Part shown: one piece after another, positions 8,240-49,953 of the stretch
Layout: each line of letters begins with the position of its first letter
Position numbering within the stretch: the first letter of the stretch is position 1
Assembly (NCBI RefSeq): GCF_020966775.1
Contig: NZ_JAJKFV010000011.1
Location: 485,023-549,022 of the forward strand
DNA: 64,000 nt
Origin: Rhodopirellula halodulae
GTDB taxonomy: Bacteria > Planctomycetota > Planctomycetia > Pirellulales > Pirellulaceae
Direction: 5' to 3'
Notes under the pieces: generated by a model
Told to the model about the DNA's origin: nothing
What the model saw: the letters and a program-made list of their open reading frames with translations, nothing else
Databases searched by the model: none
Translations under genes and position numbers: made by a program

Positions 8240-9733
8240 TTGCGACACATTCAATCCCCCCGCCGCCGCACGTCCGTGAGTCGTTTCTTGAGGTCTTCCT
8301 CTCTGCTCGCGGTGACCATGATGGCCGGCGGATCAACATCTTTGGTCCCGACCGCACCGGCCGCCGACATCAATCGAGATTGGCCGCAGTGGCGTGGTCC
8401 CGATGGATCCGGAGTCGCCGAGGATTCCAATCCTCCGATCACCTGGAGTGAGTCTGAGAACATCCGATGGAAAATCGATGTCCCCGGTGTCGGAAGCAGC
8501 ACACCGATCGTGCTGGGTGATCGAGTCTATGTCAGCACCGCCGTCAAAACGGATCGCGTTGCGGAGAAACCCGCCGGCGAAGAATCAGCCGCCGAAGAAA
8601 CACCTCAACCAGAGGCTCCCCCACGACGATCCGCCGAGCCGGGATCCGATGATGATCGACGTGGGCCCGGTCGCGGTGGAAGAGGCCGGGGTCGTGGTCG
8701 AGGACGCGGTGGGTTTGGTGGCGGAGCCCAGCCAACAAACTACTACGACTTCATGGTCATCGCGTACAACCGATCCAACGGCGAAGAAGTGTGGCGCACC
8801 TCGGTCACGCAACAGGTTCCTCACGAAGCCGGACACAACACAAACAACTTCGCCTCGTCGTCACCCGTCACCGATGGAAAACGACTCTACATGTCCTTCG
8901 GTTCGCGAGGTGTGTTTTGCCTTGATCTTGAAGGAAAGCAACTCTGGGATGTGAACCTTGGCCAGATGCAAACCCGCGCCCAATTCGGCGAAGGAAGCTC
9001 TCCCTCCATTCACAACGACGTTTTGGTTGTGCCGTGGGATCATGAAGGCGAATCCTTCATCGTTGCACTGGACGCTCAAACGGGTGAAGAGAAATGGCGT
9101 CAATCCCGCGACGAACAAACGACTTGGTCCACACCACTGATCACCGAATACGACGGACGAACCCAAGTCATCACCAATGGTTCCAAGCGAGTCCGCAGTT
9201 ACGACCTGATGACCGGTGAATTGATTTGGGAGTGCGGTGGCCAAGCGGGCAACCCCATCCCGTCGCCGGTTCGTTTCGAAGACAACGTGATCGTGATGAC
9301 CGGTTTTCGTGGCTACGCGATCTACTCGATTCCATTGAATTCCAAAGGCGACATCACGGATAGCGATCAAATCACCTGGTACGAAGAAGACGCCGCTCCT
9401 TACGTGCCTTCGCCGGTGCTTTACAAAGGCCAACTGTACTTTGTGAAGTCCAACAACGGCGTGTTGGTTTCGCGATCAGCGAAGACGGGTGAATTGTTGA
9501 TCGACCAAACACGCTTGCCCGACATTTCGTCGGTCTACGCGTCGCCCGTCGCGGCGGCGGACCACATCTACTTCACCGGCCGCGACGGAACCACGTTGGT
9601 TCTGAAACATGGAAACGAATTTCAAACCGTCGCCACCAATGAATTGGAAGAAGAAATCGACGCGTCCCCCGCGATCGTGGGTGACGAAATTTTCCTGCGT
9701 GGAAAGTCGCATCTCTACTGCATCGCCAAGTAA
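8240..9733 (+). CDS. Exported PQQ-like beta-propeller protein
   Basis: 497 residues if the TTG at 8240 is used; it leads directly into an Arg-rich n-region and hydrophobic signal peptide ending near APAAD. No better ATG keeps the signal peptide intact; the ATG pair at about 8318 would remove its charged part. The body has repeated propeller blades (WPQWRGPDGSGVAED, GEEVWRTSV, GKQLWDVNLG, GEEKWRQS, GELIWECGGQ), as in the PQQ-binding-like repeat proteins abundant in planctomycetes. A glycine-arginine repeat (GRGGRGRGRGRGRGGFGGG, nt about 8676-8727) is inserted after the first blade. No quinoprotein dehydrogenase active site was identified, so it is probably a structural or binding propeller in the periplasm. 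A strong terminator follows. Confidence 0.85.
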   Translation: MRHIQSPRRRTSVSRFLRSSSLLAVTMMAGGSTSLVPTAPAADINRDWPQWRGPDGSGVAEDSNPPITWSESENIRWKIDVPGVGSSTPIVLGDRVYVSTAVKTDRVAEKPAGEESAAEETPQPEAPPRRSAEPGSDDDRRGPGRGGRGRGRGRGRGGFGGGAQPTNYYDFMVIAYNRSNGEEVWRTSVTQQVPHEAGHNTNNFASSSPVTDGKRLYMSFGSRGVFCLDLEGKQLWDVNLGQMQTRAQFGEGSSPSIHNDVLVVPWDHEGESFIVALDAQTGEEKWRQSRDEQTTWSTPLITEYDGRTQVITNGSKRVRSYDLMTGELIWECGGQAGNPIPSPVRFEDNVIVMTGFRGYAIYSIPLNSKGDITDSDQITWYEEDAAPYVPSPVLYKGQLYFVKSNNGVLVSRSAKTGELLIDQTRLPDISSVYASPVAAADHIYFTGRDGTTLVLKHGNEFQTVATNELEEEIDASPAIVGDEIFLRGKSHLYCIAK

Positions 9734-36762: not shown

Positions 36763-39300
36763 TCATTCGGCCGACTGGGCTTCGTCTCGAAAGGCATTCA
36801 GGTCGAGGATGTTGATGATGGCGCCTTTGCGTGAACTTCCGCTGATGTAAGGCACAACTCGCAACAGGATGCGTTCCCCGTTAATCGTATCCACCTCGCG
36901 AATGAACTTTTTACCCGAACGAAGAACAATCTCGAGTTGCTCCGGCAAGTCTTCAATCACCATCGAGTGAGTGAAACTCGATAGCGAGCGGCCAATGTCG
37001 TGGTCCACCAAATTGAAATAACGCGTCGCTGCGGGCGTGAACCGACGAATGTAAAGATTTTCGTCGACGAACAGGGTTCCAATGTCCGTGCTGCTGAGCA
37101 GGTTTTCGATATCCTCGGTGACTTCTTGAAGCTCGGTGATCTTGCGGTGGTTTTCCGCATTCACAGAGTACAACTCTTCATTGACGCTATGCAATTCTTG
37201 GTTGGTGCTTTGAAGTTCCTCGTTGGATGCAATCAACTCTTCGTTGGTGGATTGCAATTCTTCATTGCTGGTTTCCAGCTCTTCGATGGTGGCACTCAAG
37301 CTTTCCTTGGCAAATGCCAACTCCGCTTCCAACGCGTCGTATTGGTCCCCCGGCCGCGCGACGCGAACCTCGGTTTCGACCACATTGTGCTTTGTGTCGG
37401 GCACCCCCAGTTCAACGAACCACACAAACGCCGATTGAACGGCGCTGTGCAGCATCCGCACGGTGACATCGGTATCCGCGATCTTTCCGTTGACGAAAAA
37501 CGGCACGTCACGGATCACGATCTTTGACTCGGGCTCCCGAGCCGAACGAACCAACGCCGCGCCCAACGTCGTGCGGGCCTCTCCTTCAATCATCCTCAGC
37601 AAATTGCCACTGAAACGGCCGGCGGTGTTTTGCAGGTACTTGCTGGCGTCGCCGAACACGTGCAGCACATTGCGTTGTTCATCCAGCAGCAACCCACACT
37701 CGACAAATTCACCCAACAACAAGTCATAAGCGTCTAGCAGACCAGTGAAGCTCAGTTGCTCTGGCTTGTCCCGATTCAGGATATTGACCAATCGTCGAGG
37801 CGCTTGCTCTTTCGCCCTCAGTTGTTCGTACGACTTGATGGCCACCGGCAATGATCGAAGTTTGCGATAGATTCGCCACGTCGGGTCCAACGTTTCAAAC
37901 TCGTCTTGCAGCTTGCCGGGCGTCTCGCTGCTTCCGAGCATCATCAGGCCATCTTTTTCCAACGAGAAATGCAACGAAGCGATCGCAGCATTCTGGGCCT
38001 GAGGCTTGAAATAGATCAGCATGTTTCGACACGTCACCACATGAATTTTGGTGAACGGCGGATCGACGATTAGGTTGTGCTGTGCGAACACAATCTGCCG
38101 CCGGATCTCGGGCGTGACCTTGTATCGCGTTTTGCTGACCGGAGTGAAGAATCGGTTCTGTCGTTGTCGCGAAACGAATTCCAAGGATTCGGCGGAGAAC
38201 ATCCCGCTGGCCGCTCGGTCCAAAGCTCCTTGATGTGCGTCGGTGGCCAAGACTTTGAAACGCGGCTCTTTGCCCAATCGCTCAAAGGCTTCCGTCCCGA
38301 TCATCGCCATCGTGTAGGCTTCTTCGCCCGACGCACAACCCGCCACCCAGATCCGAAACTCTTCGTCCGGTTTCAGGTGAGCAACCATTCGGTTGATTCG
38401 CGACTGAAGTGAGAAGAACGCTTCCGTATCACGAAAGAACTTGGTCACACCGATCAACAAATCGTGATAGAGCGTGTCGACCTCTGCTTTATCCGAACGC
38501 AATAGCTCGGCGTACTGCTGGATGCTTTTACAGTGACGTGAATGCAGTCGGCGTTCCAGCCGTCGCGCCACGGTGGACTCTTTGTAGCCACTGAAGTCAA
38601 TGCTGTGACGATCTGACAACAGCGAAAAGACGAGGCGAATCCCAGACAGGTCTTCAGAGGTCAATTCTTCCCGACGCGATGGACCATCGGGTTCATTCAG
38701 ATGTTCCCAAAGTGAGACCGCGATCTCTGATGGCGACAAAATATAATTGATGCAATCCGTTGCGATGGCGTTCTTTGGCATCCCGTCGAACTGCGCAGTG
38801 TCCGGAAGCTGCGCGTAGGTGATGCCTCCACTTTCGTAGATAGCACGCACTCCCGCCGTTCCATCGGACCCGGTGCCCGACAAAACAACGCCGAACGCAT
38901 TGGCACCAAAACTCTTCGCAATGGACTGGAACAACAAATCCACCGGACGTTGAATTTGTTCCCGATCCATGTCGCTGGTCACGAAATGACCATCCACGAC
39001 CGTCAGGTTCTTTTTCGGCTGAATCAGGTAAACCGTGTTTGGTTCGAGTATGGTTCCGTTCTCGGTATTGACCACATTCATGTTGGTGAATCGCGAAAGG
39101 ATTTCATCCATTAAACTCTTGAAGTCCGGCGACAGATGCTGAACAACGATGAACGTCATTCCCGTATCACTCGGCAATTTGCCGAAGAACTCCTCCAACG
39201 CTTTCAGCCCACCAGCGGACGCGCCGATCCCCGCCACCGCCCGAATGCGTTGAACGGGTACGTCGACCGCGTCGGGATTTTCCGAGTGAGTGCTATGCAT
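36763..39300 (-). CDS. CheB-CheR-PAS fusion protein without kinase domain
   Basis: 845 residues from ATG 39300 (8-base overlap with the upstream gene; a GTG at 39354 would extend it). Order: CheB methylesterase-like domain (catalytic Ser in GIGASAGG, His in VVQHLSPDF, Asp in LSGTGSDG); CheR methyltransferase (SAM motif VAGCASGEEAYTMAM, VVTCRNMLIYFKPQ); a PAS-like segment; a long [12 protein letters not shown] coiled coil (about 650-715); and a PAS domain at about 720-836. There is no histidine kinase or receiver, so it ends in a sensor domain. Similar CheB/CheR proteins are known but their substrates are unclear. It is the last gene of the minus-strand signalling operon. Confidence 0.9.
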   Translation of the reverse strand: MHSTHSENPDAVDVPVQRIRAVAGIGASAGGLKALEEFFGKLPSDTGMTFIVVQHLSPDFKSLMDEILSRFTNMNVVNTENGTILEPNTVYLIQPKKNLTVVDGHFVTSDMDREQIQRPVDLLFQSIAKSFGANAFGVVLSGTGSDGTAGVRAIYESGGITYAQLPDTAQFDGMPKNAIATDCINYILSPSEIAVSLWEHLNEPDGPSRREELTSEDLSGIRLVFSLLSDRHSIDFSGYKESTVARRLERRLHSRHCKSIQQYAELLRSDKAEVDTLYHDLLIGVTKFFRDTEAFFSLQSRINRMVAHLKPDEEFRIWVAGCASGEEAYTMAMIGTEAFERLGKEPRFKVLATDAHQGALDRAASGMFSAESLEFVSRQRQNRFFTPVSKTRYKVTPEIRRQIVFAQHNLIVDPPFTKIHVVTCRNMLIYFKPQAQNAAIASLHFSLEKDGLMMLGSSETPGKLQDEFETLDPTWRIYRKLRSLPVAIKSYEQLRAKEQAPRRLVNILNRDKPEQLSFTGLLDAYDLLLGEFVECGLLLDEQRNVLHVFGDASKYLQNTAGRFSGNLLRMIEGEARTTLGAALVRSAREPESKIVIRDVPFFVNGKIADTDVTVRMLHSAVQSAFVWFVELGVPDTKHNVVETEVRVARPGDQYDALEAELAFAKESLSATIEELETSNEELQSTNEELIASNEELQSTNQELHSVNEELYSVNAENHRKITELQEVTEDIENLLSSTDIGTLFVDENLYIRRFTPAATRYFNLVDHDIGRSLSSFTHSMVIEDLPEQLEIVLRSGKKFIREVDTINGERILLRVVPYISGSSRKGAIINILDLNAFRDEAQSAE

Positions 39301-42300
39301 GGTCACCGGAGCCTTGCTCCGAGAGGTTTCCTGAACTGAATGGTTTGTATTCACGCAGCGTTAGACAGACGACCGTTCCACCACTTGGACTTCTCTCCAA
39401 CCAGATTCGCCCACCGTGCCGAATCACAATGCGTTTGCAAATCGCCAGCCCCACGCCGATCCCTGGCACGTCGGGTTTGAACCCCAAACGCTTGAAAATC
39501 GTGAACACACGATTCGCGTGACGTTCGTCCACACCGATCCCGTTGTCCGCAACGTTGATCTGAACGAAACCGTCCACCGCGGTGTTGGACAGATGAATTC
39601 GCGGCGGCTGGTCGGAACGATACTTGATCGCGTTATCGATCAAATGGAAGAACAACAACTGAAGTTGCTCTCGATCACCTGCCACCACGGCCAGCTCATC
39701 CATTTCAACTTCGGCACCGTAAAAGTCCAATGTCGTCGATAAGTTGGCCAGGGCATCGCCGATCGCGTCCGTCAACGGAACTCGGTCCAGTGGGCGTCCC
39801 AAAGTGTTGATTCGTGAATACGTCAACAGAGCTTCGATCATCATGCTCAAGTTCGACGCACTGTCGCGAATCACCTTGCCCGACTTCAAAATCTTCTGCG
39901 AGTCATTTTCTTTGGTCGCCGCGTCGAGCATCTCCGCATACTGCGAAATGTGACGCAGAGGCGCTTGCAAATCGTGCGACACCGCATAGGCAAAATCGGG
40001 CAACTCCTCACCCACCTGAGCCAGCGTCATCAACGTCCGTTGAGCCTGCTCGGCCTGCTTGAGTGCCGTGATGTCTGTCGTGGTCAACACGATCCCCCGG
40101 ACCACACCCTCCTCCGTGCGGTACGGTTGCATGCGTTGCAGGTAGACGCGGCCGTCTGAGTTCTGCACTTCGATTTCACGAGATTCGGCAGACGCCAAAA
40201 CAGCCGCGGCATCAGAAAGCAGGTTTGGGCTATCCAACTTGTACGCGATGTGATTGATCGGACGACCGATGTCCTGTTCCATCACATTGAACGCGGCAGA
40301 AATTGCCGGGGTGAACATGCGGATGCATAACTCATTGTCGAGAAAGATCGTTCCGATGTCCGTGCTCTTCAAAAGATTGTCCATGTCACTGGTGAGCTGT
40401 GTCAGCTCTTCAATCTTTTGCTTGTGCTCGGAATTGACCGTGTACAACTCCTCGTTGACGCTGTGTAATTCTTCGTTGGTGCTCTGCAGCTCCTCGTTTG
40501 ATGCGATCAACTCTTGGTTGGTGGCCTGCAATTCTTCGTTGCTGGACTCCAATTCTTCCACCGTCGCCTGCAACGTCTCTCGTGTGTAGGAAAGCTCCAG
40601 TTCAAGGTTGCTGATGCGTTCACTGGACAAATCGTCGGATCGAAAACGCTCGGCCTCCTCATCGTCCGACACCTCATCGTGCATTTCTTCAATGCAAATC
40701 AGATAGAGGCTTTGACTTGACTTCTTGTACGGCTCGACGGTGATTTTGTAGATCCGGTCCGGAGTGGACTCGTCCCCGGCAACGCGAATTCCGTCAAAGA
40801 TCGCCGGCACACCTTTTTGCTTGGCTCGATGCAATGCGGCACTGGTGGCCGTTCTCAATTCCAGGCATAGCATTTTCAAAACATCGAGACTCGGCCGCCC
40901 TTCCGGCTGCACCAGCAGTTTTCGCGCGTCGCCGAAGGTATGAATCACCTCGTTGAATTCGTTGACCATCAAGCTCGGAGGAACATGCTTGGTCAGCAAG
41001 TCTTCCATGGCGGTCGACACCCACGCTTGCCGATCGCCCTGCGGTGCAACCGCAACAAACCCATGTTGTTTTTCTCGAATGACGGTGCTGAGAATGGGCG
41101 TCATTGGTAACCGAGCCGCGTCGGGCAACCGAACATCCCTTCGCTTAGAATACAGACGCCAGTGCCGGTCGAGTGTTTCAAACTCAGGCGCCAAATCGCC
41201 GACGGTTTCACTGGGACCGAGGAAGAGAATTCCTCCCGTCCGCAATCCAAAATGGAACAGCGACAGAATCCGCTTCTGAATCTTTGGTTCCAAATAAATC
41301 AGAACGTTTCGACAACTAATGAAATCCAGTCGAGTGAACGGGGGGTCATTGGTGAGATCATTTGCAGCAAAGATCACGCGCTGTCTCACATCGCGTTTGA
41401 TGTGACACAGGCCACCGGATTGAGTGAAGTATTTGACCTGAAAATCGGTCGGCACGGTGTCCAATGCCGATGTCGGGTAAACACCGGTACTAGCCGTTTC
41501 CAAAGACGTCCGGTGAACGTCCGTTGCAAACACCTTGTAGTCGCAGGTGCGACCTTCTTTTTCCATCGCTTCGTGAAAGAGCATGGCGATGGAATAGGCC
41601 TCTTCTCCCGTTGCACACCCTGGGACCCAAATCCGCAGCTCATCGCCAACCGCAGCGTTCTCCACAATCTTGGGAATGATTTCATTCCGCAGACGGACGA
41701 AGGCCGCTTCGTCACGGAAGAACTGAGTGACCTCAACCAACAGGTCCCGGTAGAGGGCCTCCACTTCTTCTTCGTCATTCTCAAGCAACGCCGCGTACTC
41801 GTTGGCGTCCTTGAATCCGCCCATCTGCATCCGGCGTTCGAGGCGTCGGGTGATGGTGGCCGGTTTGTACAATGCGAAATCCAGACCATGCCGCAGACGA
41901 AACATTCGCAGGATACTGAACAGGGCCGAATCACCGGTGCCCTCACTGATCTCGTCTTGATTCTTGAGCACGTCCCGATCGCGACCCTTGGCGTATTCGA
42001 TCAATCGCGAAGGCATCTCCTCGGGCGTGCAAACGACGTCCACCGCATTGGACTGAATGGCAGCACGCGGCATCCCGTCAAAGCCAGCCGACGCTTCCGT
42101 CTGCACCATCACAACGCCGCCCAATTCGCGAACGTCTTTGATCCCACGCGAACCGTCGCTACCGGTGCCTGACAAAACGATCGCCACCGCGCGAGGTCCC
42201 GCATCTTGTGCCAATGAGCGAAAGAAGATGTCGATGGGCAAGTTCAAACCGCGGGCATGGTCTTGCTGAGTTAGCAACAATTTGCCGGCTGACAAAGCCA

Positions 42301-42562
42301 TGTTCTTTTCAGGTGGGATCAAGTAGATCGTGTCAGGCTCCACCGTCATTCCATCGGTCACCTTGCGGATCGTCATCTTGGTGTGACGAGCCAACAGCTC
42401 ATCCATCAAACTCTTAAAGTCTGGCGAAAGGTGCTGAATAATGACAAACGCCATACCAGAATCGGCTGGCATGTGATCAAAGAAGTCCTCAATCGGCGCA
42501 AGCCCACCGGCGGACGCCCCGATTCCGATGACGAGTAGTGGTTGGTCTTCAGAATCGCTCAT
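39293..42562 (-). CDS. CheB-CheR-PAS-histidine kinase hybrid
   Basis: 1089 residues. CheB domain 1-190 ([28 protein letters not shown]), CheR about 205-475 ([28 protein letters not shown]), a PAS-like region, a NEELQATNQELIASNEEL coiled coil (about 650-720), a PAS domain (about 725-830, STDIGTIFLDNELCIRMF), DHp helix with His near 865 in AYAVSHDLQAPLRHI, and HATPase (FFHLIDNAIKYR, VADNGIGVD, GIGVGLAICKRI). The DHp type is that of phytochrome-like kinases. No membrane helix. Located between a CheY-like receiver gene (52 bases upstream) and the shorter CheB-CheR-PAS gene, it likely donates phosphoryl groups to that receiver. Confidence 0.92.
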   Translation of the reverse strand: MSDSEDQPLLVIGIGASAGGLAPIEDFFDHMPADSGMAFVIIQHLSPDFKSLMDELLARHTKMTIRKVTDGMTVEPDTIYLIPPEKNMALSAGKLLLTQQDHARGLNLPIDIFFRSLAQDAGPRAVAIVLSGTGSDGSRGIKDVRELGGVVMVQTEASAGFDGMPRAAIQSNAVDVVCTPEEMPSRLIEYAKGRDRDVLKNQDEISEGTGDSALFSILRMFRLRHGLDFALYKPATITRRLERRMQMGGFKDANEYAALLENDEEEVEALYRDLLVEVTQFFRDEAAFVRLRNEIIPKIVENAAVGDELRIWVPGCATGEEAYSIAMLFHEAMEKEGRTCDYKVFATDVHRTSLETASTGVYPTSALDTVPTDFQVKYFTQSGGLCHIKRDVRQRVIFAANDLTNDPPFTRLDFISCRNVLIYLEPKIQKRILSLFHFGLRTGGILFLGPSETVGDLAPEFETLDRHWRLYSKRRDVRLPDAARLPMTPILSTVIREKQHGFVAVAPQGDRQAWVSTAMEDLLTKHVPPSLMVNEFNEVIHTFGDARKLLVQPEGRPSLDVLKMLCLELRTATSAALHRAKQKGVPAIFDGIRVAGDESTPDRIYKITVEPYKKSSQSLYLICIEEMHDEVSDDEEAERFRSDDLSSERISNLELELSYTRETLQATVEELESSNEELQATNQELIASNEELQSTNEELHSVNEELYTVNSEHKQKIEELTQLTSDMDNLLKSTDIGTIFLDNELCIRMFTPAISAAFNVMEQDIGRPINHIAYKLDSPNLLSDAAAVLASAESREIEVQNSDGRVYLQRMQPYRTEEGVVRGIVLTTTDITALKQAEQAQRTLMTLAQVGEELPDFAYAVSHDLQAPLRHISQYAEMLDAATKENDSQKILKSGKVIRDSASNLSMMIEALLTYSRINTLGRPLDRVPLTDAIGDALANLSTTLDFYGAEVEMDELAVVAGDREQLQLLFFHLIDNAIKYRSDQPPRIHLSNTAVDGFVQINVADNGIGVDERHANRVFTIFKRLGFKPDVPGIGVGLAICKRIVIRHGGRIWLERSPSGGTVVCLTLREYKPFSSGNLSEQGSGDHA

Positions 42563-42614
42563 GGGGACTTTTCAAGGATGCGTGGCGGGGGTGAGTCAAA
42601 GGATGGTGAAAGAT

Positions 42615-43055
42615 TCACTTCTGCGGCAGTTTGACCACGTTGACCCAGAAGTCCTGGACGCTCTGAATCACGGAAAAGAACTGCGTCAAATCCACCGGCT
42701 TCACGATGTAGTTGTTGGCTGCTAATCCATACGACTCATGAATGTCACGTTCTTGACTGGACGTGGTCAGCACGACAACAGGAATGGCCTTGAGCGCAAC
42801 ATCGGAACGAATCTCTTTGAGCACCGATCGGCCATCCAACTTCGGCATATTCAGATCGAGCAGAATCAAATCAGGACGCACGGCGCCCTCGTACTTGCCC
42901 TGTTTGCGCAAAAACTGCATCACCTCCTCACCATCCCAAACGTGATGGATGTTGTTGCGGATCTTTCCCTGTTGCAGTGCATCGATGGTCAATTCCGCGT
43001 CGGTTTCACTGTCTTCCGCCAGCAAGATATCGATCGGCTTCGGCTGATTTTGCAT
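42615..43055 (-). CDS. Single-domain response regulator (Rcp1-like)
   Basis: 146 residues from ATG 43055, which overlaps the end of the kinase gene by 50 bases. Acidic pair in ILLAEDSETDAEL, phosphoacceptor Asp in LILLDLNMPKLDG, Thr in VVVLTTSSQERD and Lys in NYIVKPVDL. The insert HVWDGEEVMQFLRKQGKYEGA is typical of cyanobacterial Rcp1, the partner of phytochrome Cph1. It has no output domain, so it acts as a phosphate shuttle or interaction switch for the adjacent kinases. Confidence 0.93.
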   Translation of the reverse strand: MQNQPKPIDILLAEDSETDAELTIDALQQGKIRNNIHHVWDGEEVMQFLRKQGKYEGAVRPDLILLDLNMPKLDGRSVLKEIRSDVALKAIPVVVLTTSSQERDIHESYGLAANNYIVKPVDLTQFFSVIQSVQDFWVNVVKLPQK

Positions 43056-44772
43056 ATTCGAATTCGGTAATGGATGAAATGTTGGACGACGGAACGGAAG
43101 CACTTGCCACCGGCAACGAAATACGGAATGAAGCACCTCGTCCCAAGGATGACACGAGAGTCATGGATCCGTTGTGGCGGTCGACGATGCGTTTACAGAG
43201 CGCCAAACCGATTCCCGTCCCGGGAATCTGTTCACGGCGGTGAAGCCGTTTGAAGAGTTCAAAAATTTGCGAGTGATGACTTTGGTCGATCCCGATGCCT
43301 TCATCGGAAACATCAACGACCAATCGACCGTCTTCACGGATTTGATCGATCGTGACTTTGGCCCGCTGACCTGGCTTTCGAAATTTGATCGCGTTGTTGA
43401 TCAAGTTCTGAAACAACTCGACCAACAACCCTTCATGACCTTCGACGACATCGAGATCAGCGACTTGAATGTCAGCGTTGGTTTCCTGGATCAAATGCGA
43501 CAAGTTTTGCATCGCGGTTTGGACGCAATCGTTCAAATCAACCGGAGCGATCTCCAACTCGGATCGTCCGACTCGCGACAGCGCCAGCAGATCATCAATC
43601 AATGCTTTCATGCGTCCGGCGCCATCCACGATGTGCTTCAGGTAGCTCTGACCTTTGTCATCCAGATCTCCCGCATATCGCTGCTGCAGCAATTGGCTGA
43701 AACCGATGATCGCCCGAAGAGGCTCCTGAAGATCATGTGACGCGGCGAAGGCAAACCGCTGAAGTTCTTGGTTACTTTGCTGCAAGTCGTGCTCGTACTG
43801 CTTGCTATCTTCGATATTGAAGATCATCCCGGCAGTCCGAACCGGTGTCCCGACTCCGTTGAACAAGGTGTGTGCGTGCGTTCGAAACCAACGGTAGTCT
43901 CCATCGTGATGCAGCATCCGAAACTCGGCACTGAATGGCTTCTTGCTTTCCCGCTGCTGAACGAGCTGCTCATCGAAGCTTGCTAGGTCCTCTGGATGGA
44001 TCCGGTCGCGGCTGGCTTGGATCGTGTTGGGAATGGACTTCGTGTCATCACCTTCGAACCCCAGCAAACGCCGAAACTTTGGCGCGTACTCAACCTCGTC
44101 GTTTTGACGATTCCAATTCCAAATCCCACCGCTTTCACCCAACAAACGGATGTAGACCACTCGATTTCGCAGATCGTTTAGATGCTGACGGACGCTGAGC
44201 GTCGCCAACAGAATCGCAGTTGCAATCGCGACCGCCACATTCACCAGCATCAGCATTCGGGCTTGCGATTGAAGTTCCTCCGCTTCCAGCCAACATTGGT
44301 CCGTGAACGATTCAATTCGCCGCTCAAGCTCGTCCAAGGTCGGTTGGTCGTCAAATCGAACCTTCGCATCGATCTCACGGGCGCTGGCACCGTTTTCAGC
44401 CATCGCGTGCACGACGGCCAACTGCGAGGTGTAAGCCGTGATCATTGCCGACGTTTCCGGCAATTCAGGTCCCTGGATCTCACCAAATTGAATTTGCCGC
44501 AGCTCCTTGATCTTCTGACGAGCCTTGCGTGCGTTCTCTTGAGCGGCGGCGTAGTACTTCGACTCGTCGGGACGCAGAACGTAGTTCTTGAAGTTGTGGA
44601 TTAGCCCGCCGTAACCAAGTTCGCGATCCAATTGCTCCGATGCATTCACAGCTTGCGACGAAAGCAAGATCACTTCGTGTCGACGTTCATCGGCACGGAT
44701 CATGAACCAACTGATGATCGAGACAGCTGCGACACAGCCTCCAATGCAAAAAACGAGCGTTCGCGTGCGCAT
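43006..44772 (-). CDS. Membrane sensor histidine kinase with PAS domain
   Basis: 588 residues from ATG 44772. First membrane helix about 6-25, an extracytoplasmic helical domain of about 150 residues containing GYGGLIHNFKNYVLRPDES, second helix about 178-196 (LMLVNVAVAIATAILLATL), a PAS domain with PAC (about 220-335, EFRMLHHDGDYRWFRTHAH), DHp His in FAASHDLQEPLRAIIGF, and HATPase (FQNLINNAIKFR, VSDEGIGID, GTGIGLALCKRI). The GLIHNFKNYVLR motif occurs in the sensor part of other kinases and diguanylate cyclases, with unknown ligand. It precedes and overlaps the receiver gene, a kinase/receiver pair. Confidence 0.92.
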   Translation of the reverse strand: MRTRTLVFCIGGCVAAVSIISWFMIRADERRHEVILLSSQAVNASEQLDRELGYGGLIHNFKNYVLRPDESKYYAAAQENARKARQKIKELRQIQFGEIQGPELPETSAMITAYTSQLAVVHAMAENGASAREIDAKVRFDDQPTLDELERRIESFTDQCWLEAEELQSQARMLMLVNVAVAIATAILLATLSVRQHLNDLRNRVVYIRLLGESGGIWNWNRQNDEVEYAPKFRRLLGFEGDDTKSIPNTIQASRDRIHPEDLASFDEQLVQQRESKKPFSAEFRMLHHDGDYRWFRTHAHTLFNGVGTPVRTAGMIFNIEDSKQYEHDLQQSNQELQRFAFAASHDLQEPLRAIIGFSQLLQQRYAGDLDDKGQSYLKHIVDGAGRMKALIDDLLALSRVGRSELEIAPVDLNDCVQTAMQNLSHLIQETNADIQVADLDVVEGHEGLLVELFQNLINNAIKFRKPGQRAKVTIDQIREDGRLVVDVSDEGIGIDQSHHSQIFELFKRLHRREQIPGTGIGLALCKRIVDRHNGSMTLVSSLGRGASFRISLPVASASVPSSNISSITEFEYAKSAEADRYLAGGRQ

Positions 44773-44948
44773 CGAGATCACCAAGTAGCGAAATTTGTGC
44801 GGAAAACGACCATTCTGCTAGGTCCTGCGGAGCAACGCAAGTGAACATGGTCGCGTTAAGCCTCGCCGACGCGAGCACTTAGATGGGCGATCGAACATCC
44901 TCCACACAACAGAATTGACCAATTCGTGCTCCGAACACGACCGACGAG

Positions 44949-47900
44949 TCAGTTGGCCAGAACACATGGCTGCATCTCAGAAAGTTCAGCCAGAATTTGA
45001 TCCAGCTTCTCGGGATTCAGCGGCTTGACCAAATGCAAATCGAATCCGGATTCGCGAACGGCCTCGCGGTCTTTGTCCTGCCCGTAGCCGGTCAACGCCA
45101 CCAACCGAGTCCCGGCCAGCTCCCGATCGGCTCGCACTCGCCTCGCCAACTCGTGGCCGTCCATCACTGGCAATCCGATGTCAATGATCGCAGCATCCGG
45201 ACGCACCTCACGGATTTTTTGCCAACCCGCCGCACCATCCTGCGCCTTGAACACTTTTAGCCCTCGCAACTCCAACAACACCGACAACATTTCGCGAGCG
45301 TCTTCGATGTCTTCGACGAGCACAACGGTTCGCAATTCAGACACCGAATCTTGCGTGGTTTCCTCCGGCTCAACCGTGACCCCGCACGACAACGGCAACG
45401 AAACGGAAAAGGTACTGCCTCGACCAATCCCGTCGCTGGATGCGGTCACGCTGCCGCCGTGCAACTCCACCACCGCCTTGACCAAAGTCAATCCAACTCC
45501 CATGCCTCCATTGGATCGATCCAGGGTCTCATCGGACTGATAGAATAGCGAGAAGATTTCATTCAATTTGTCTCTGGAGATCCCTGCACCGGTGTCTCGC
45601 AAATGAATCAATGCACTTCCTCGGTCGGCCGACAATGAAAGATGGATCGAACCTCCGGCGGATGTGTACTTCACGGCGTTGGTCAGCAGGTTCACCGTGA
45701 CCTGCTCCAACCTGGCAGGGTCGCCTTCCACAATGATGGGATGATCCGGGAGTTCCGCAGACAACTTCAGCCCGGCTTCCTCGGCTCGCCCCGAAATTGT
45801 CCCCACCGCCTGCTCCACCACGACCGCCAAATCGGTCTGTTGCTTTCGCAGCTCAATCTTTCCATGGGTGATTCGCGAAACGTCGAGCAAGTCATCCAGC
45901 AAACGTGACATTTGTCCCAATTGTCGTCCAACGACTCGCAAGGCTTTCTCGGTCACCTCCGGTTCGATCTGGTCCGACGACATGATTGCGATCGCGTTGG
46001 TGACCGCCCCCAATGGGTTCCGCAGCTCATGCGACAGCATTGCCAAGAATTGGTCTCGGCGGGCGACGCCTTGTTTGACCTCTTGTTCCGCCACGCGACG
46101 CTGTGTGACGTCTTCGAAGGATCCCGCCATTCGAGTTTCTTTGCGTCCAGCTTTTCGCTCGGCCGAACCACGCATGTGAAACCATCGGTACTCGCCGGTG
46201 TTTCCATATTCCATTCGATATTCGATATCGAAGGCACTGGATTGCTCGAGATGAGAACTCAATGCTTTCATCACCCGTCCATGATCGTCCGGGTGCATCA
46301 GTTCTTCCCACAAAGAAACCGTCATTTCGTCGCTGGGAGAACGCCCGAGCAGGGTGTACATCCGGCGGGAACACCAAATCGCTTCCTTGGTGACGTCCTT
46401 CCAATCCCAAATGCCCGCATTGCTACCTCGCACTGCCAAATCGAAACGTTCTTCGCTCTTTTGCAACGCTTCGGTAGCGGCCTGGAGCATGGTGACGTCC
46501 ACCAACGTCACCACTGCTCCTTCGACCGTGCCCCGCGACAGATAAGGAAAGATCCGTAGCAGATACCACTGCCCATTTTCGTCTTTGATCTCGCGTTGGA
46601 CCGATTGTTCGGTCTGAATCACTTCGTTGATGCTGTCAATCAATGAAGGATCTTCGAGACGATGCGTGAACGCGTCGATGGGACGCCCGATGTCCTGAGG
46701 AATGAGATTGAACAACTCCGCAATCTGAGGCGTGAATCGACGCAATCGCAGCCGTGAATCCAAGAACAACGTGTGCACGTTCGTGGTGGTCAACAGATTG
46801 TCGATGTCATCATTGAGCTCGGTCAGTTCATCGATTTTGCGCTGGTGCTCCGCATTGACCGTGTAGAGTTCTTCGTTGACCGAATGCAACTCTTCGTTGG
46901 TGCTTTGCAATTCTTCATTGGACGCCGTCAATTGCTCGTTGGCCGACTGCAGCTCTTCGTTGGTCGACTGGTGTTCTTCGATCGTTGACTGCAAATGACT
47001 TTGCGTGAACTGAAGCTCGCGTTCGAGATACTCGACCGCCATGACCTGCTCCGCATTCAGGACGCTCGTTTCCTTTGGGCTGACCCTGGTTGCCTGTCGT
47101 TCCAATTGAATCAGCACGTTCCCTTCACGGCCGTCGCCCATGTCGAACTGCTCGACACTCATACGAACCGCCTGGGGCTGACCATTCAATTCGCACATAA
47201 TGTCTTCGATGGAGACCGGCTTTTCATCCCGCCGAAGCTGCACCAAAGCAATCGATAGAGGCGACCTCAGTTCCGGAGCGATGATCTGCAGCAGATTGTT
47301 CTGAGGGCGTCCGTCGGCAAACGACAGATACTCACCAGCACCGCCGAAGACATGCAAAATCTCTTTTTGGGAATTGACCAAAATCGCGGGTGACAAAAAT
47401 CGCTCGAGCAATTTGTCGTAAGTTTTCAACAACTGGCGCGTCGCCACCCGGCCCTGAACGGTCTCTTGTGGGGGCACCGCGTGAGGAGCCCAGGAACGTC
47501 GGGCATTGATACCGCTGTGAGTCGTCGGGCTGATCTCTCGATGCTTCCGAAAGATTCGCTGCGATTCATCCAGCGGCTGAAACTCGTTTCGCAACGCGCC
47601 CAGCGATTCGCTTCCGCCCAGGCACAACACCCCACCTGACTTCAACCCAAAATGGAACAAAGACAACACGCGTTGCTGCGTCGCCGGTTGCAGGTGAACC
47701 AAGAGGTTTCTGCAGGAGATCAGATCCAACCGCGTGAACGGTGCATCACGGATCACGTTGTGAGGCGTGAACACGACCAGTTTGCGAATTTCAGGCGTGA
47801 GGTGAAATCCGTTTTGACGTTGAATAAAGAAACGCTCGCGTCTCTCGGGTGTGATTGCAGACAGGCGATCTCCGGTGAAAACGCCCCGACCTGCGACGGA

Positions 47901-48980
47901 CAGGGAAGGCTCATGAACGTCGGATGCAAAGATTCGAATGTTCTTTTCCAAACCACGCCGCTCGAACTCCTCCACGAGCTGAATAGCGATGGAATAGGCT
48001 TCTTCGCCAGTCGCTGTTCCGGCCACCCAACATCGAAAATCCTCATCCGGCGCAAGCTCATCGACCAACCGCGGAATGACGTCCAATTCCAATCGGTCAA
48101 ACGCTTTCCCATCTCGGAAGAAATCCGTCACACCGATCAGCATGTCGCAGTACAACTGGTTCAGCTCATCCGCATCTTCCCGAACCAGCTCAACGTATTC
48201 CTGCATCGATTCCTTTTGGGCCAAACGCACGCGTCGTTCGATCCGCCGATGGAACATCTCCGTTTTGTATTGCGAGAATTCAATGTTGAAAGCGTTGTGC
48301 AGCAGGCCAAAGATCATTCGAGCGGGCGAATCAACATATTGGCTGTTATCCAAGGCTCCGATTGAGGCGGGGTCGCTCAACAAAGACGAATCGTCCATCG
48401 CCATCCGCTGCAACGCCTTCGCGATTTCCGGCGGACTGAGCACCAAATCCGCAACGCCCGTTTCGAAAGCACTGCGAGGCATCCCATCAAACGCCGCTGA
48501 CTCAACCGATTCCACGATGACCGTGCCGCCCGCGGCTGCGATATCGCACACGCCGCGGCTGCCGTCCGTTCCCGTCCCTGACAAAATGATGCCAATGGCA
48601 TCCTGCCCCGCGTCCTGAGCCAAGGTCCGAAAGAACTCATCAACCTGAAACGATAGGCTGTGCCCCTTGTTCCGTTCCGCAAGATACAGCCGACGATTGG
48701 AGATGATCACGTGTTGCCCCGGCGGCAACAAGTAAATCTGGTTCGGCTCAACCAGCATCCCGTCTTCGATCAAATGAAGCGGCATGTCCGAATGACGAGA
48801 CAGCAACTGATCCATCATGCTGTCAAAGTCGGGGGACAGATGCTGGATGACGATGATGGCCAATCCGGCGTTGGGATCCAGCTCATCAAACAGCGATTCC
48901 AACGAATGCAACCCACCGGCCGAAGCACCGATGCCAACCAACTTCGTTGGCGCAGCGGACGCGGAAGATTGCTCGTTCAT
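44949..48980 (-). CDS. CheB-CheR-PAS-PAS-histidine kinase-receiver hybrid
   Basis: 1343 residues from ATG 48980 (GGAAGAGAG ribosome site). CheB ([28 protein letters not shown]), CheR about 225-490 ([28 protein letters not shown]), a coiled coil of [13 protein letters not shown] repeats (about 660-730), PAS (about 735-840), a second PAS with PAC (about 850-970), DHp with His in [15 protein letters not shown], HATPase ([28 protein letters not shown]) and a C-terminal receiver (about 1215-1335, [12 protein letters not shown], Asp in [12 protein letters not shown]). It is the most complex of the three paralogues. It lies 84 bases downstream of the CsrA-receiver gene and 176 bases upstream of the membrane kinase gene, all on the minus strand. 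Confidence 0.93.
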
Positions 48981-49064
48981 CGTTCTCTCTTCCGAAGGAA
49001 TCGCAGCGTGGCGAGGAACGCATTTCATCGCGTCCGCTCAACCAAGCTCAATCAAAAAACCTCT

Positions 49065-49817
49065 TCAGCACGCCGACCCGAGATGACTTTCGATGTCAGA
49101 CAAAAATTGTTGGGGCCGAATAGGCTTGGAGAACCACTGGTCGTAAGGGCTTTCACTTTCAGGCGGCGTTTCTTCTGGATCGCATCCGCTGATCACGAAC
49201 AGCTTCAACTCTTGGAACCGAGGGTCACAACGAATCGCCTTGGCCGTATTGGTTCCGTTCATGCGAGGCATGTTCATATCCAGCAGCACGACATCCGGCG
49301 CATGATGCTGAGCCAAATAGTCCATCGCGTCTTCGCCATCTTCGGCCACGCTAACGTCAAAACCATTGACACGTAGATACTCTGCCAACAATTCACGCTC
49401 CTGCGCATTGTCTTCCACGACCAATGCGGTACGGCGACGCTTTTCCGGAGATGTTTCATTGCCGAAAGCCGGAGCGGCTCCCGTGAAAGCATCCAGTTCG
49501 GAAAGCTGAGAAAGAGCCGATTCAAGCGTCTTCTCCGCTTTCTCCAATTGCCCCGATTGAACTTGGTGCTGCAACACCGACAAAGTCAGCGAAGCCGTGT
49601 TCAGCTGGTTCCGGAAAGCATGACGAGTCACTCGACTCGCAACTTCCAATTTCTCGAGCGTTTCTTCCTCGACCAACTCACTTCGCAAAACGCGAACCGA
49701 GTCTGGTGCACTCACGCCGACCTGAACCTTCTTCCCACTGACTCGCAAGATTTCGATCTTGATCCCAAGATTGACGAACGAAAACTCTTGCTTCACTTTT
49801 CTCGATAAGACGAGCAT
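49065..49817 (-). CDS. CsrA RNA-binding domain fused to phosphotransfer-like helix and receiver
   Basis: 250 residues from ATG 49817 with a strong GGAAGGAG ribosome site. Residues 1-52 are a CsrA domain: MLVLSRK, LRVSGKKVQVGVSAPDSV, and RVLRSEL, with Leu4, Arg6 and Arg45 at the RNA-contact positions of E. coli CsrA (Arg45 corresponds to Arg44). Residues 55-110 form two predicted helices with His66 in RHAFRNQL, resembling the H box of histidine phosphotransfer/Spo0B-like domains. Residues 129-248 are a receiver: Glu135-Asp136, phosphoacceptor Asp180 in VVLLDMNMPRMNG, Ser210, Lys231 in WFSKPI. CsrA normally is a 60-70-residue stand-alone dimer; this fusion predicts phosphorylation-controlled RNA binding. 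It heads the CheB/CheR kinase cluster. Domain calls are firm; function is inference. Confidence 0.9.
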   Translation of the reverse strand: MLVLSRKVKQEFSFVNLGIKIEILRVSGKKVQVGVSAPDSVRVLRSELVEEETLEKLEVASRVTRHAFRNQLNTASLTLSVLQHQVQSGQLEKAEKTLESALSQLSELDAFTGAAPAFGNETSPEKRRRTALVVEDNAQERELLAEYLRVNGFDVSVAEDGEDAMDYLAQHHAPDVVLLDMNMPRMNGTNTAKAIRCDPRFQELKLFVISGCDPEETPPESESPYDQWFSKPIRPQQFLSDIESHLGSAC

Positions 49818-49953
49818 GGGAGGTCTCCTTCCCAAGAAGTTAGGTGCCCCTTCATTCGAACTCCGCGTCCGAAAAGGGCGAGCGTCCAGCATCTTGCCGA
49901 ACGTCAGTCGATGAAGACGTGAGGCAGTCCCTTCCTCACAACTCGCCCAATCA
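49818..49953 (-). promoter_or_regulatory. GGA-rich 5' leader of the CsrA-receiver gene
   Basis: About 135 nt between a putative start near 49953 and the ATG. Read on the minus strand it has seven GGA triplets (complement of TCC at 49826, 49830, 49862, 49868, 49885, 49928 and 49933). GGA is the core of CsrA-binding sites. The last two lie in the ribosome site itself, in GGGAAGGAGACCTCCC, whose ends can pair. This predicts translational autoregulation by the CsrA domain. Confidence 0.45.

What the first reader, a model, noticed from the sequence alone, without database searches (positions are those of the whole stretch)
49065..49817. CsrA fused to a phosphotransfer-like helix and a receiver domain
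The first 52 residues are a complete CsrA (MLVLSRK start, Arg45 equal to RNA-binding Arg44 of E. coli), followed by a helical stretch with His66 in HAFRNQL and a full receiver (Asp180, Lys231, Ser210). CsrA is known as a small free dimer regulated by sRNAs or FliW. A receiver-controlled CsrA would link two-component signalling directly to mRNA translation and stability. The gene stands at the head of a kinase-rich operon that offers donor kinases.
Basis: partly seen in the sequence, partly recalled or inferred. Interest (0 to 1): 0.88.

Follow-up and report, generated by a model that had tools for sequence, protein, structure and literature searches.

The report
CsrA RNA-regulator fused to phosphorelay domains
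In planctomycete bacteria the RNA-binding regulator CsrA is joined in one protein to a histidine-bearing helical hairpin and a receiver domain, often beside a hybrid sensor kinase gene, so a sensed signal may control mRNA use directly.

Summary
The gene is on the minus strand (49817 to 49065, 250 aa): CsrA domain (1-51), two-helix hairpin (about 54-113), receiver (132-240). It is not a one-off: 146 of 151 distinct homologues carry all three parts, and 100 of 397 sampled genomes of the class match. Arg45 (148/151), Asp180 (149/151) and Lys231 (144/151) are kept.

The hairpin resembles a histidine-kinase DHp (HisKA) without its ATPase: HHalign probability 96.7%, 40 column shuffles at most 5.2%. 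The kinase phospho-acceptor His aligns with His66 (129/151).

A kinase or CheB gene lies within 1 kb of 61 of 88 family genes, against 3 of 69 control genes. Most partners are kinases ending in an intact receiver. Most likely chain: kinase His, kinase Asp, His66, Asp180, CsrA. The His66 step is inferred; its test by covariation was not significant.

The gene's leader often carries a CsrA-like GGA site at the start codon (strict motif 46/122, controls 0/193).

CsrA was already listed in print as a response-regulator output domain. I did not find the hairpin, partner or leader described in ten searches.

The parts
49065..49817 (-). CsrA-hairpin-receiver gene, 250 aa plus stop
   Evidence: 151 distinct homologues aligned, 146 with all three parts
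49665..49817 (-). CsrA domain, residues 1-51; Arg6 and Arg45 conserved
   Evidence: Pfam PF02599 E 2.8e-13; Arg6 149/151, Arg45 148/151
49479..49658 (-). Two-helix hairpin, about residues 54-113, HisKA/DHp-like, His66 in HxxRNxLN
   Evidence: AlphaFold helices 54-87 and 91-113; HHalign with kinase DHp prob 96.7; Pfam HisKA on 12 of 23 hairpins at E<=5
49098..49424 (-). Receiver domain, residues 132-240; Asp136, Asp180, Ser210, Trp228, Lys231
   Evidence: Pfam PF00072 E 1.8e-17; Asp180 149/151, Trp228 147/151, Lys231 144/151
49818..49833 (-). Leader element GGGAAGGAGACCTCCC directly before ATG: SD-like AGGAG inside an ANGGA site
   Evidence: strict motif 46/122 family leaders, 0/193 controls; own-genome match maps to window 49815-49833; does not fold better than shuffles here
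44949..49028 (-). Partner gene: CheB-CheR-PAS-PAS-HisKA-HATPase-REC hybrid kinase, 1359 aa, 36 bp downstream
   Evidence: Pfam; same partner type beside many homologues
43006..44784 (-). PAS-HisKA-HATPase kinase without receiver, 592 aa
   Evidence: Pfam
39293..42562 (-). CheB-CheR-PAS-HisKA-HATPase kinase without receiver, 1089 aa
   Evidence: Pfam
36763..39354 (-). CheB-CheR protein, 863 aa, end of the same-strand run
   Evidence: NCBIfam CheB and CheR models, below their cut-offs

Best explanation
It is an RNA-acting response regulator. Its output is a CsrA domain, and it carries its own histidine phosphotransfer hairpin, related to a histidine-kinase DHp but without the ATPase. The neighbouring hybrid kinase autophosphorylates on its DHp His and passes the phosphoryl group to its own C-terminal receiver. 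His66 of the CsrA protein takes it over, as Spo0B or ChpT do (recalled), and it moves to Asp180 of the same protein or of its dimer partner. Phosphorylation of the receiver then changes how the CsrA dimer binds GGA sites in mRNAs, probably including a site in its own leader that overlaps the ribosome-binding site. Shown here from sequence: the fusion, the retained key residues, the DHp similarity, the gene linkage, the leader motif. Inferred: phosphoryl flow and its route, the effect on RNA binding, and autoregulation.
For: Fusion conserved in class Planctomycetia-type relatives: 100 of 397 class genomes match at E<=1e-35, 6 of 13 genomes of the genus. Residues: Arg6 149/151, Arg45 148/151, Asp180 149/151, Lys231 144/151. 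Hairpin: HHalign against the DHp part of 96 kinase domains from the same stretches gives prob 96.7, score 43.4; 40 column-shuffled versions reach at most 5.2 and 14.2, the reversed profile 0.9, the ATPase part 0.9. Pfam HisKA hits 12 of 23 hairpins at E<=5, best 3.1e-6. Linkage: 61 of 88 distinct-locus family genes against 3 of 69 control genes have a kinase or CheB gene within 1 kb (with duplicate loci 64/93 and 3/72); side and strand vary. The 96 kinases found within 1 kb keep the DHp His in 95, and the 86 with a terminal receiver keep its Asp and Lys in 86. A kinase that ends in a receiver normally needs a His intermediate to reach a second receiver (general knowledge of phosphorelays): 84 of 88 His-bearing members with a kinase within 1 kb have a receiver-ended nearest kinase. 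Leader motif 46/122, 0/193 controls, 0/31 kinase genes.
Against: His66-partner covariation is not significant on the tree: 3 independent pairs, 1 for, 0 against, 2 ties. The held-out set brought no His-less member beside a receiver-less kinase and one against the rule (L272, a diverged copy). 19 of 151 have another residue at 66 and 3 a gap. 52 of 151 have no kinase or CheB gene within 1 kb, some on short contigs. A hairpin profile search of PDB sequences found no histidine kinase among 36 hits at E<=10, and for the window hairpin alone Pfam FIMAH (0.013) slightly outscores HisKA (0.019), neither over its cut-off. The window's own leader folds no better than shuffles, z 0.15.
Confidence: 0.55

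Rival explanations
1. Classical two-component regulator: a neighbouring kinase phosphorylates Asp180 directly. The hairpin is only a dimerisation or spacer element, or (through His66 and Asn70) a dephosphorylation helper, and carries no relayed phosphoryl group.
For: Some members keep CsrA and receiver without the His (19 of 151) or without the whole hairpin (L193 and L194 copies). A His-less clade sits beside kinases without a receiver. Asn at H+4, which in HisKA kinases serves phosphatase activity (recalled), is kept in 125/151.
Against: His66 is one of the best kept hairpin positions (129/151), and 86 of 96 nearby kinases carry an intact receiver of their own.
Confidence: 0.29
2. Hairpin and receiver mainly localise or multimerise CsrA, or titrate other CsrA paralogues through mixed dimers, with phosphorylation of little importance.
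For: Class genomes carry 2 to 17 CsrA matches (59 genomes), so mixed dimers are conceivable. A few members have a degenerate or cut receiver (L288, L289, L290).
Against: Asp180 149, Asp136 145 and Lys231 144 of 151, as expected if phosphorylation matters.
Confidence: 0.1
3. Artefact: chance ORF, frameshift or misassembly joining two genes.
For: None found.
Against: 146 of 151 distinct homologues from many assemblies have all three parts.
Confidence: 0.01

Closest known systems
Response regulators with CsrA output (class named in PMC2222644)
   Same: Receiver plus CsrA in one protein
   Different: The one passage read names only the class; no hairpin, partner kinase or mechanism is in it
CsrA/RsmA/RsmE family (Pfam PF02599)
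   Same: Domain above curated cut-off; Arg44-equivalent kept; ANGGA leader
   Different: Free CsrA proteins of the own genome are 70-164 aa without a receiver; here CsrA heads a 250-aa protein and most relatives have FPxLG where those have an IGD-type loop
ANTAR response regulators (AmiR/NasR type, EutV)
   Same: RNA-binding output in two-component signalling (start of abstract of PMC3369931)
   Different: ANTAR is another fold acting in antitermination (recalled); here the output is CsrA and a histidine hairpin lies between
Spo0B and ChpT phosphotransferases
   Same: DHp-derived helical hairpin with a phospho-acceptor His and no working kinase domain (recalled)
   Different: Here fused to CsrA and a receiver with no ATPase remnant; Pfam SPOB_a is weak (3 of 23, best 0.018) and HisKA better (12 of 23, best 3.1e-6)
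BarA-UvrY / Gac-Rsm pathway to CsrA
   Same: A two-component system controls CsrA activity
   Different: There the regulator drives transcription of sRNAs that sequester CsrA (start of abstract of PMC4682653); here the receiver is on the CsrA protein itself

Membership tests
CsrA (PF02599) | Profile match above cut-off | tested here: met
   50 bits against 27
CsrA (PF02599) | RNA-binding Arg44 equivalent | tested here: met
   Arg45 148/151; alignment to solved CsrA; its RNA role is recalled
CsrA (standard free protein) | NCBIfam CsrA equivalog score | tested here: not met
   TIGR00202 41.8 bits against 70.1: it has a CsrA domain but is not a standard CsrA protein
CsrA (PF02599) | Binds GGA RNA as a dimer | not testable with these tools
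   needs a binding assay
Response regulator | Receiver with acidic pair, Asp, Thr/Ser, Lys | tested here: met
   Glu135/Asp136, Asp180, Ser210, Lys231
Response regulator | Phosphorylated by a histidine kinase | not testable with these tools
   linkage only
HisKA/DHp hairpin | Profile similarity to DHp in register with the phospho-acceptor His | tested here: met
   HHalign 96.7 against shuffles at most 5.2; Pfam HisKA 12 of 23 at E<=5; but no kinase among 36 PDB hits
HisKA (PF00512) | Curated Pfam cut-off on the window protein | tested here: not met
   window hairpin 15.5 bits against 26.9; not listed for the whole protein
HisKA/DHp hairpin | Carries a phosphoryl group on His66 | not testable with these tools
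   needs a 32P transfer assay
Spo0B-type (SPOB_a) | Pfam SPOB_a match | tested here: inconclusive
   3 of 23 hairpins, best E 0.018; window 13.4 bits against 28.1

The most novel reading that the evidence does not exclude
A complete phosphorelay that ends on mRNA: a CheB-CheR-PAS hybrid kinase passes a phosphoryl group through its own receiver to a DHp hairpin inside the CsrA protein and on to the attached receiver, switching mRNA binding without transcription or sRNAs, and the protein controls its own translation through a GGA site over its ribosome-binding site.
Probability: 0.4. Interest if true: 0.85.

Novelty: new variant of a known kind. Interest (0 to 1): 0.62.

Why it matters
The routes from sensor kinase to CsrA that I know run through transcription of sRNAs. 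A CsrA with its own relay hairpin and receiver would let a signal reset mRNA translation and stability in one step, in a phylum whose regulation is little studied. It makes direct post-transcriptional two-component output testable with a few purified proteins, and gives a group of CheB-CheR kinases a predicted target.

Tried and rejected
Frameshift or artefact: rejected (146 of 151 homologues with all three parts). Spo0B membership of the hairpin: weak. PDB sequence search with the hairpin profile: 36 hits at E<=10, the best being designed PPR proteins matched over profile positions 30-46, no histidine kinase. Foldseek of the AlphaFold model: the 50 matches shown of 1597 align over about 117-130 columns to receiver proteins, so it says nothing on the hairpin. 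His66-against-partner-receiver rule: clear in raw counts, not significant on the tree, other half untested by the held-out set, and separate receiver genes stand near four of the six His-less cases as well. Leader motif as a regulon finder in the own genome: 4 matches, 0 in the reversed control; besides this gene they head frames of 18, 127 and 403 aa, so no regulon claim. Rfam on window 34000-60000 at gathering threshold: no match. tRNA: none in the window. L074, whose match spans residues 3-246, is a kinase next to a receiver, not the fusion.

Outside the phylum nothing else was searched. Only 10, 7 and 6 candidates per genome were scored in the order, phylum and class searches, so absences are lower bounds. 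Leader controls use mechanically chosen starts with an SD-like match.

Full report
What is there. The gene lies on the minus strand, 49817 to 49065, 250 aa. Pfam finds CsrA at 1-51 (50 bits, cut-off 27) and a receiver at 132-240 (63.9 bits, cut-off 30.2). AlphaFold on the window protein with nine homologues gives strands in the CsrA part, two helices at 54-87 and 91-113, and a confident receiver; mean pLDDT 76.6 but pTM 0.49, so the arrangement of the parts is not resolved. The CsrA piece aligns with solved CsrA/RsmE chains with Arg45 on their conserved Arg (the number Arg44 and its RNA role are recalled). The own genome has six CsrA matches; the other five proteins are 70 to 164 aa without a receiver.

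How widespread. With a profile of 17 members, 100 of 397 class genomes match at E<=1e-35. In the list of matches 99 of these genomes have one that starts at model position 1, 2 or 4; the remaining one (G777) starts at 83 on a contig end. In the window's genus 6 of 13 genomes match, all candidates scored. In a phylum-wide draw of 343 genomes, matches at E<=1e-25 that begin at model position 1 or 2 are all in genomes of the window's own class; the matches labelled 'same phylum' begin later and look like other receivers. I fetched 80 stretches and, with eight named loci and the window, got 99 matches, 94 distinct proteins. Sixty more stretches gave 59 matches, 57 of them new. Of the 151, 146 have all three parts; L193 and L194 each have one copy without the hairpin, L270 and L286 lack the N-terminal end as read (both start at or near a contig end), L288 lacks most of the receiver. 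Conservation over the 151: Arg6 149, Arg45 148, Asp136 145, Asp180 149, Ser or Thr at 210 145, Trp228 147, Lys231 144, His66 129, Asn70 125.

The hairpin. 129 His-bearing hairpins share HxxRNxLN, Gly89 at the turn (113/129) and a second helix. HHalign of this profile against the DHp part of 96 kinase domains found in the same stretches gives probability 96.7, score 43.4, over 45 columns, with the hairpin His on the kinase phospho-acceptor His. Forty column shuffles reach at most 5.2 and 14.2; the reversed profile and the ATPase part give under 1. Pfam HisKA hits 12 of 23 diverse hairpins at E<=5, best 3.1e-6. Against: for the window hairpin HisKA scores 15.5 bits, under its cut-off of 26.9 and just behind FIMAH; on whole proteins HisKA showed in 2 of 17 members, best 0.013; and the PDB sequence search with the hairpin profile brought no histidine kinase.

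The partner. In the first set 66 of 94 genes have a kinase or CheB gene within 1 kb, in the second 33 of 57. With stretch edges and duplicate loci left out, 61 of 88 first-set genes do, against 3 of 69 other genes lying more than 5.5 kb away in the same stretches (with duplicates 64/93 and 3/72). The commonest partner is CheB-CheR-PAS-kinase-receiver, then a shorter kinase-receiver; it lies upstream or downstream and on either strand. The 96 kinases within 1 kb keep the DHp His in 95; 86 of them end in a receiver, with Asp and Lys kept in 86 of 86.

The relay test. I wrote the rule down before fetching the second set: His66 present where the nearest kinase ends in a receiver. On 150 rows: His with receiver-ended kinase 84; His with receiver-less kinase 4; another residue with receiver-less kinase 6; another residue with receiver-ended kinase 1 (L272); gap with receiver-ended kinase 1 (L270, cut); no kinase within 1 kb 54. 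Five of the six His-less, receiver-less cases are in one weakly resolved clade, and the tree offers only 3 independent pairs: 1 for, 0 against, 2 ties. The second set brought no His-less case beside a receiver-less kinase, and one case against. Separate receiver genes weaken both sides: three of the four His-bearing exceptions have one within 300 bp (the fourth, L217, has an overlapping receiver frame), but so do four of the six His-less cases, within 450 bp, and two of those also have a receiver-ended kinase within 750 bp. So the rule is suggestive, not shown.

The leader. Of 136 non-redundant family leaders, 122 have an SD-like match. Of these 112 have ANGGA near the start, against 64 of 193 controls chosen the same way and 15 of 31 kinase genes. 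The strict motif GG-N(1-2)-ANGGAG-N(1-2)-CC occurs in 46 of 122, 0 of 193 and 0 of 31. Among leaders of proteins under 50% identical it is 20 of 63. In RNA folding the GGA falls in a hairpin loop in 32 of 122 family leaders (shuffled flanks mean 12.8, at most 19), but in 20 of 193 controls (mean 21.6) and 4 of 31 kinase genes (mean 4.5). The two arm pairs -5:+6 and -4:+5 pair more often than dealt-out partners (0/2000 each in 122; 2/2000 and 22/2000 in the thinned 63). Against a definite stem: pairs further out show no excess, pair -3:+4 loses its excess after thinning (302/2000), neighbouring registers pair as often because both arms are runs (0.80 for -5:+5, 0.74 for -4:+6), relatedness may inflate the counts, and the window's own leader folds no better than its shuffles and pairs the GG of the SD. 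I read it as a probable CsrA-type site over the ribosome-binding site, bound by this protein or another CsrA; the stem is minimal or uncertain.

What is known. [quoted passage not shown] Two census papers that I tried are not held; that they describe the class is recalled. A 2025 review (PMC12471899, passages read) lists E. coli CsrA itself as an orphan response regulator, which does not fit a 61-residue protein (length; that this chain is the E. coli one is recalled). Ten searches of the paper library (listings and starts of abstracts seen, two empty) showed me no title or abstract on such a protein, its hairpin or its partner kinases; most subscription papers are not in that library.

Judgement. 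A receiver-controlled CsrA is very likely. A full phosphorelay through His66 is the best single mechanism (0.55). The sign of the effect on RNA binding is unknown.

Noticed in passing
window 36763-49028, minus strand: Four further same-strand genes: CheB-CheR-PAS-kinase-receiver, PAS kinase, CheB-CheR-PAS-kinase, CheB-CheR. Three of the genome's six CheB matches lie in this cluster.
   Followed up: partly
L189, L190, L192, L232: Clusters with two CsrA-REC paralogues: one without His beside a CheB-CheR kinase lacking a receiver, one with His beside the receiver-ended CheB-CheR kinase.
   Followed up: yes
L193:16572-17144 and L194:2091-2651: CsrA joined to a receiver with no hairpin at all (190 and 186 aa).
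   Followed up: partly
L289 and L290, from position 9001: CsrA-hairpin proteins whose receiver part is degenerate (no conserved Lys).
   Followed up: no
own genome C29:1980352-1981420: A FliW match about 570 bp upstream of one free-standing CsrA match; class genomes carry 2 to 17 CsrA matches.
   Followed up: no
L003 (own genome C29:987587-987733): A CsrA protein with a long tail, 164 aa in all, no receiver.
   Followed up: no
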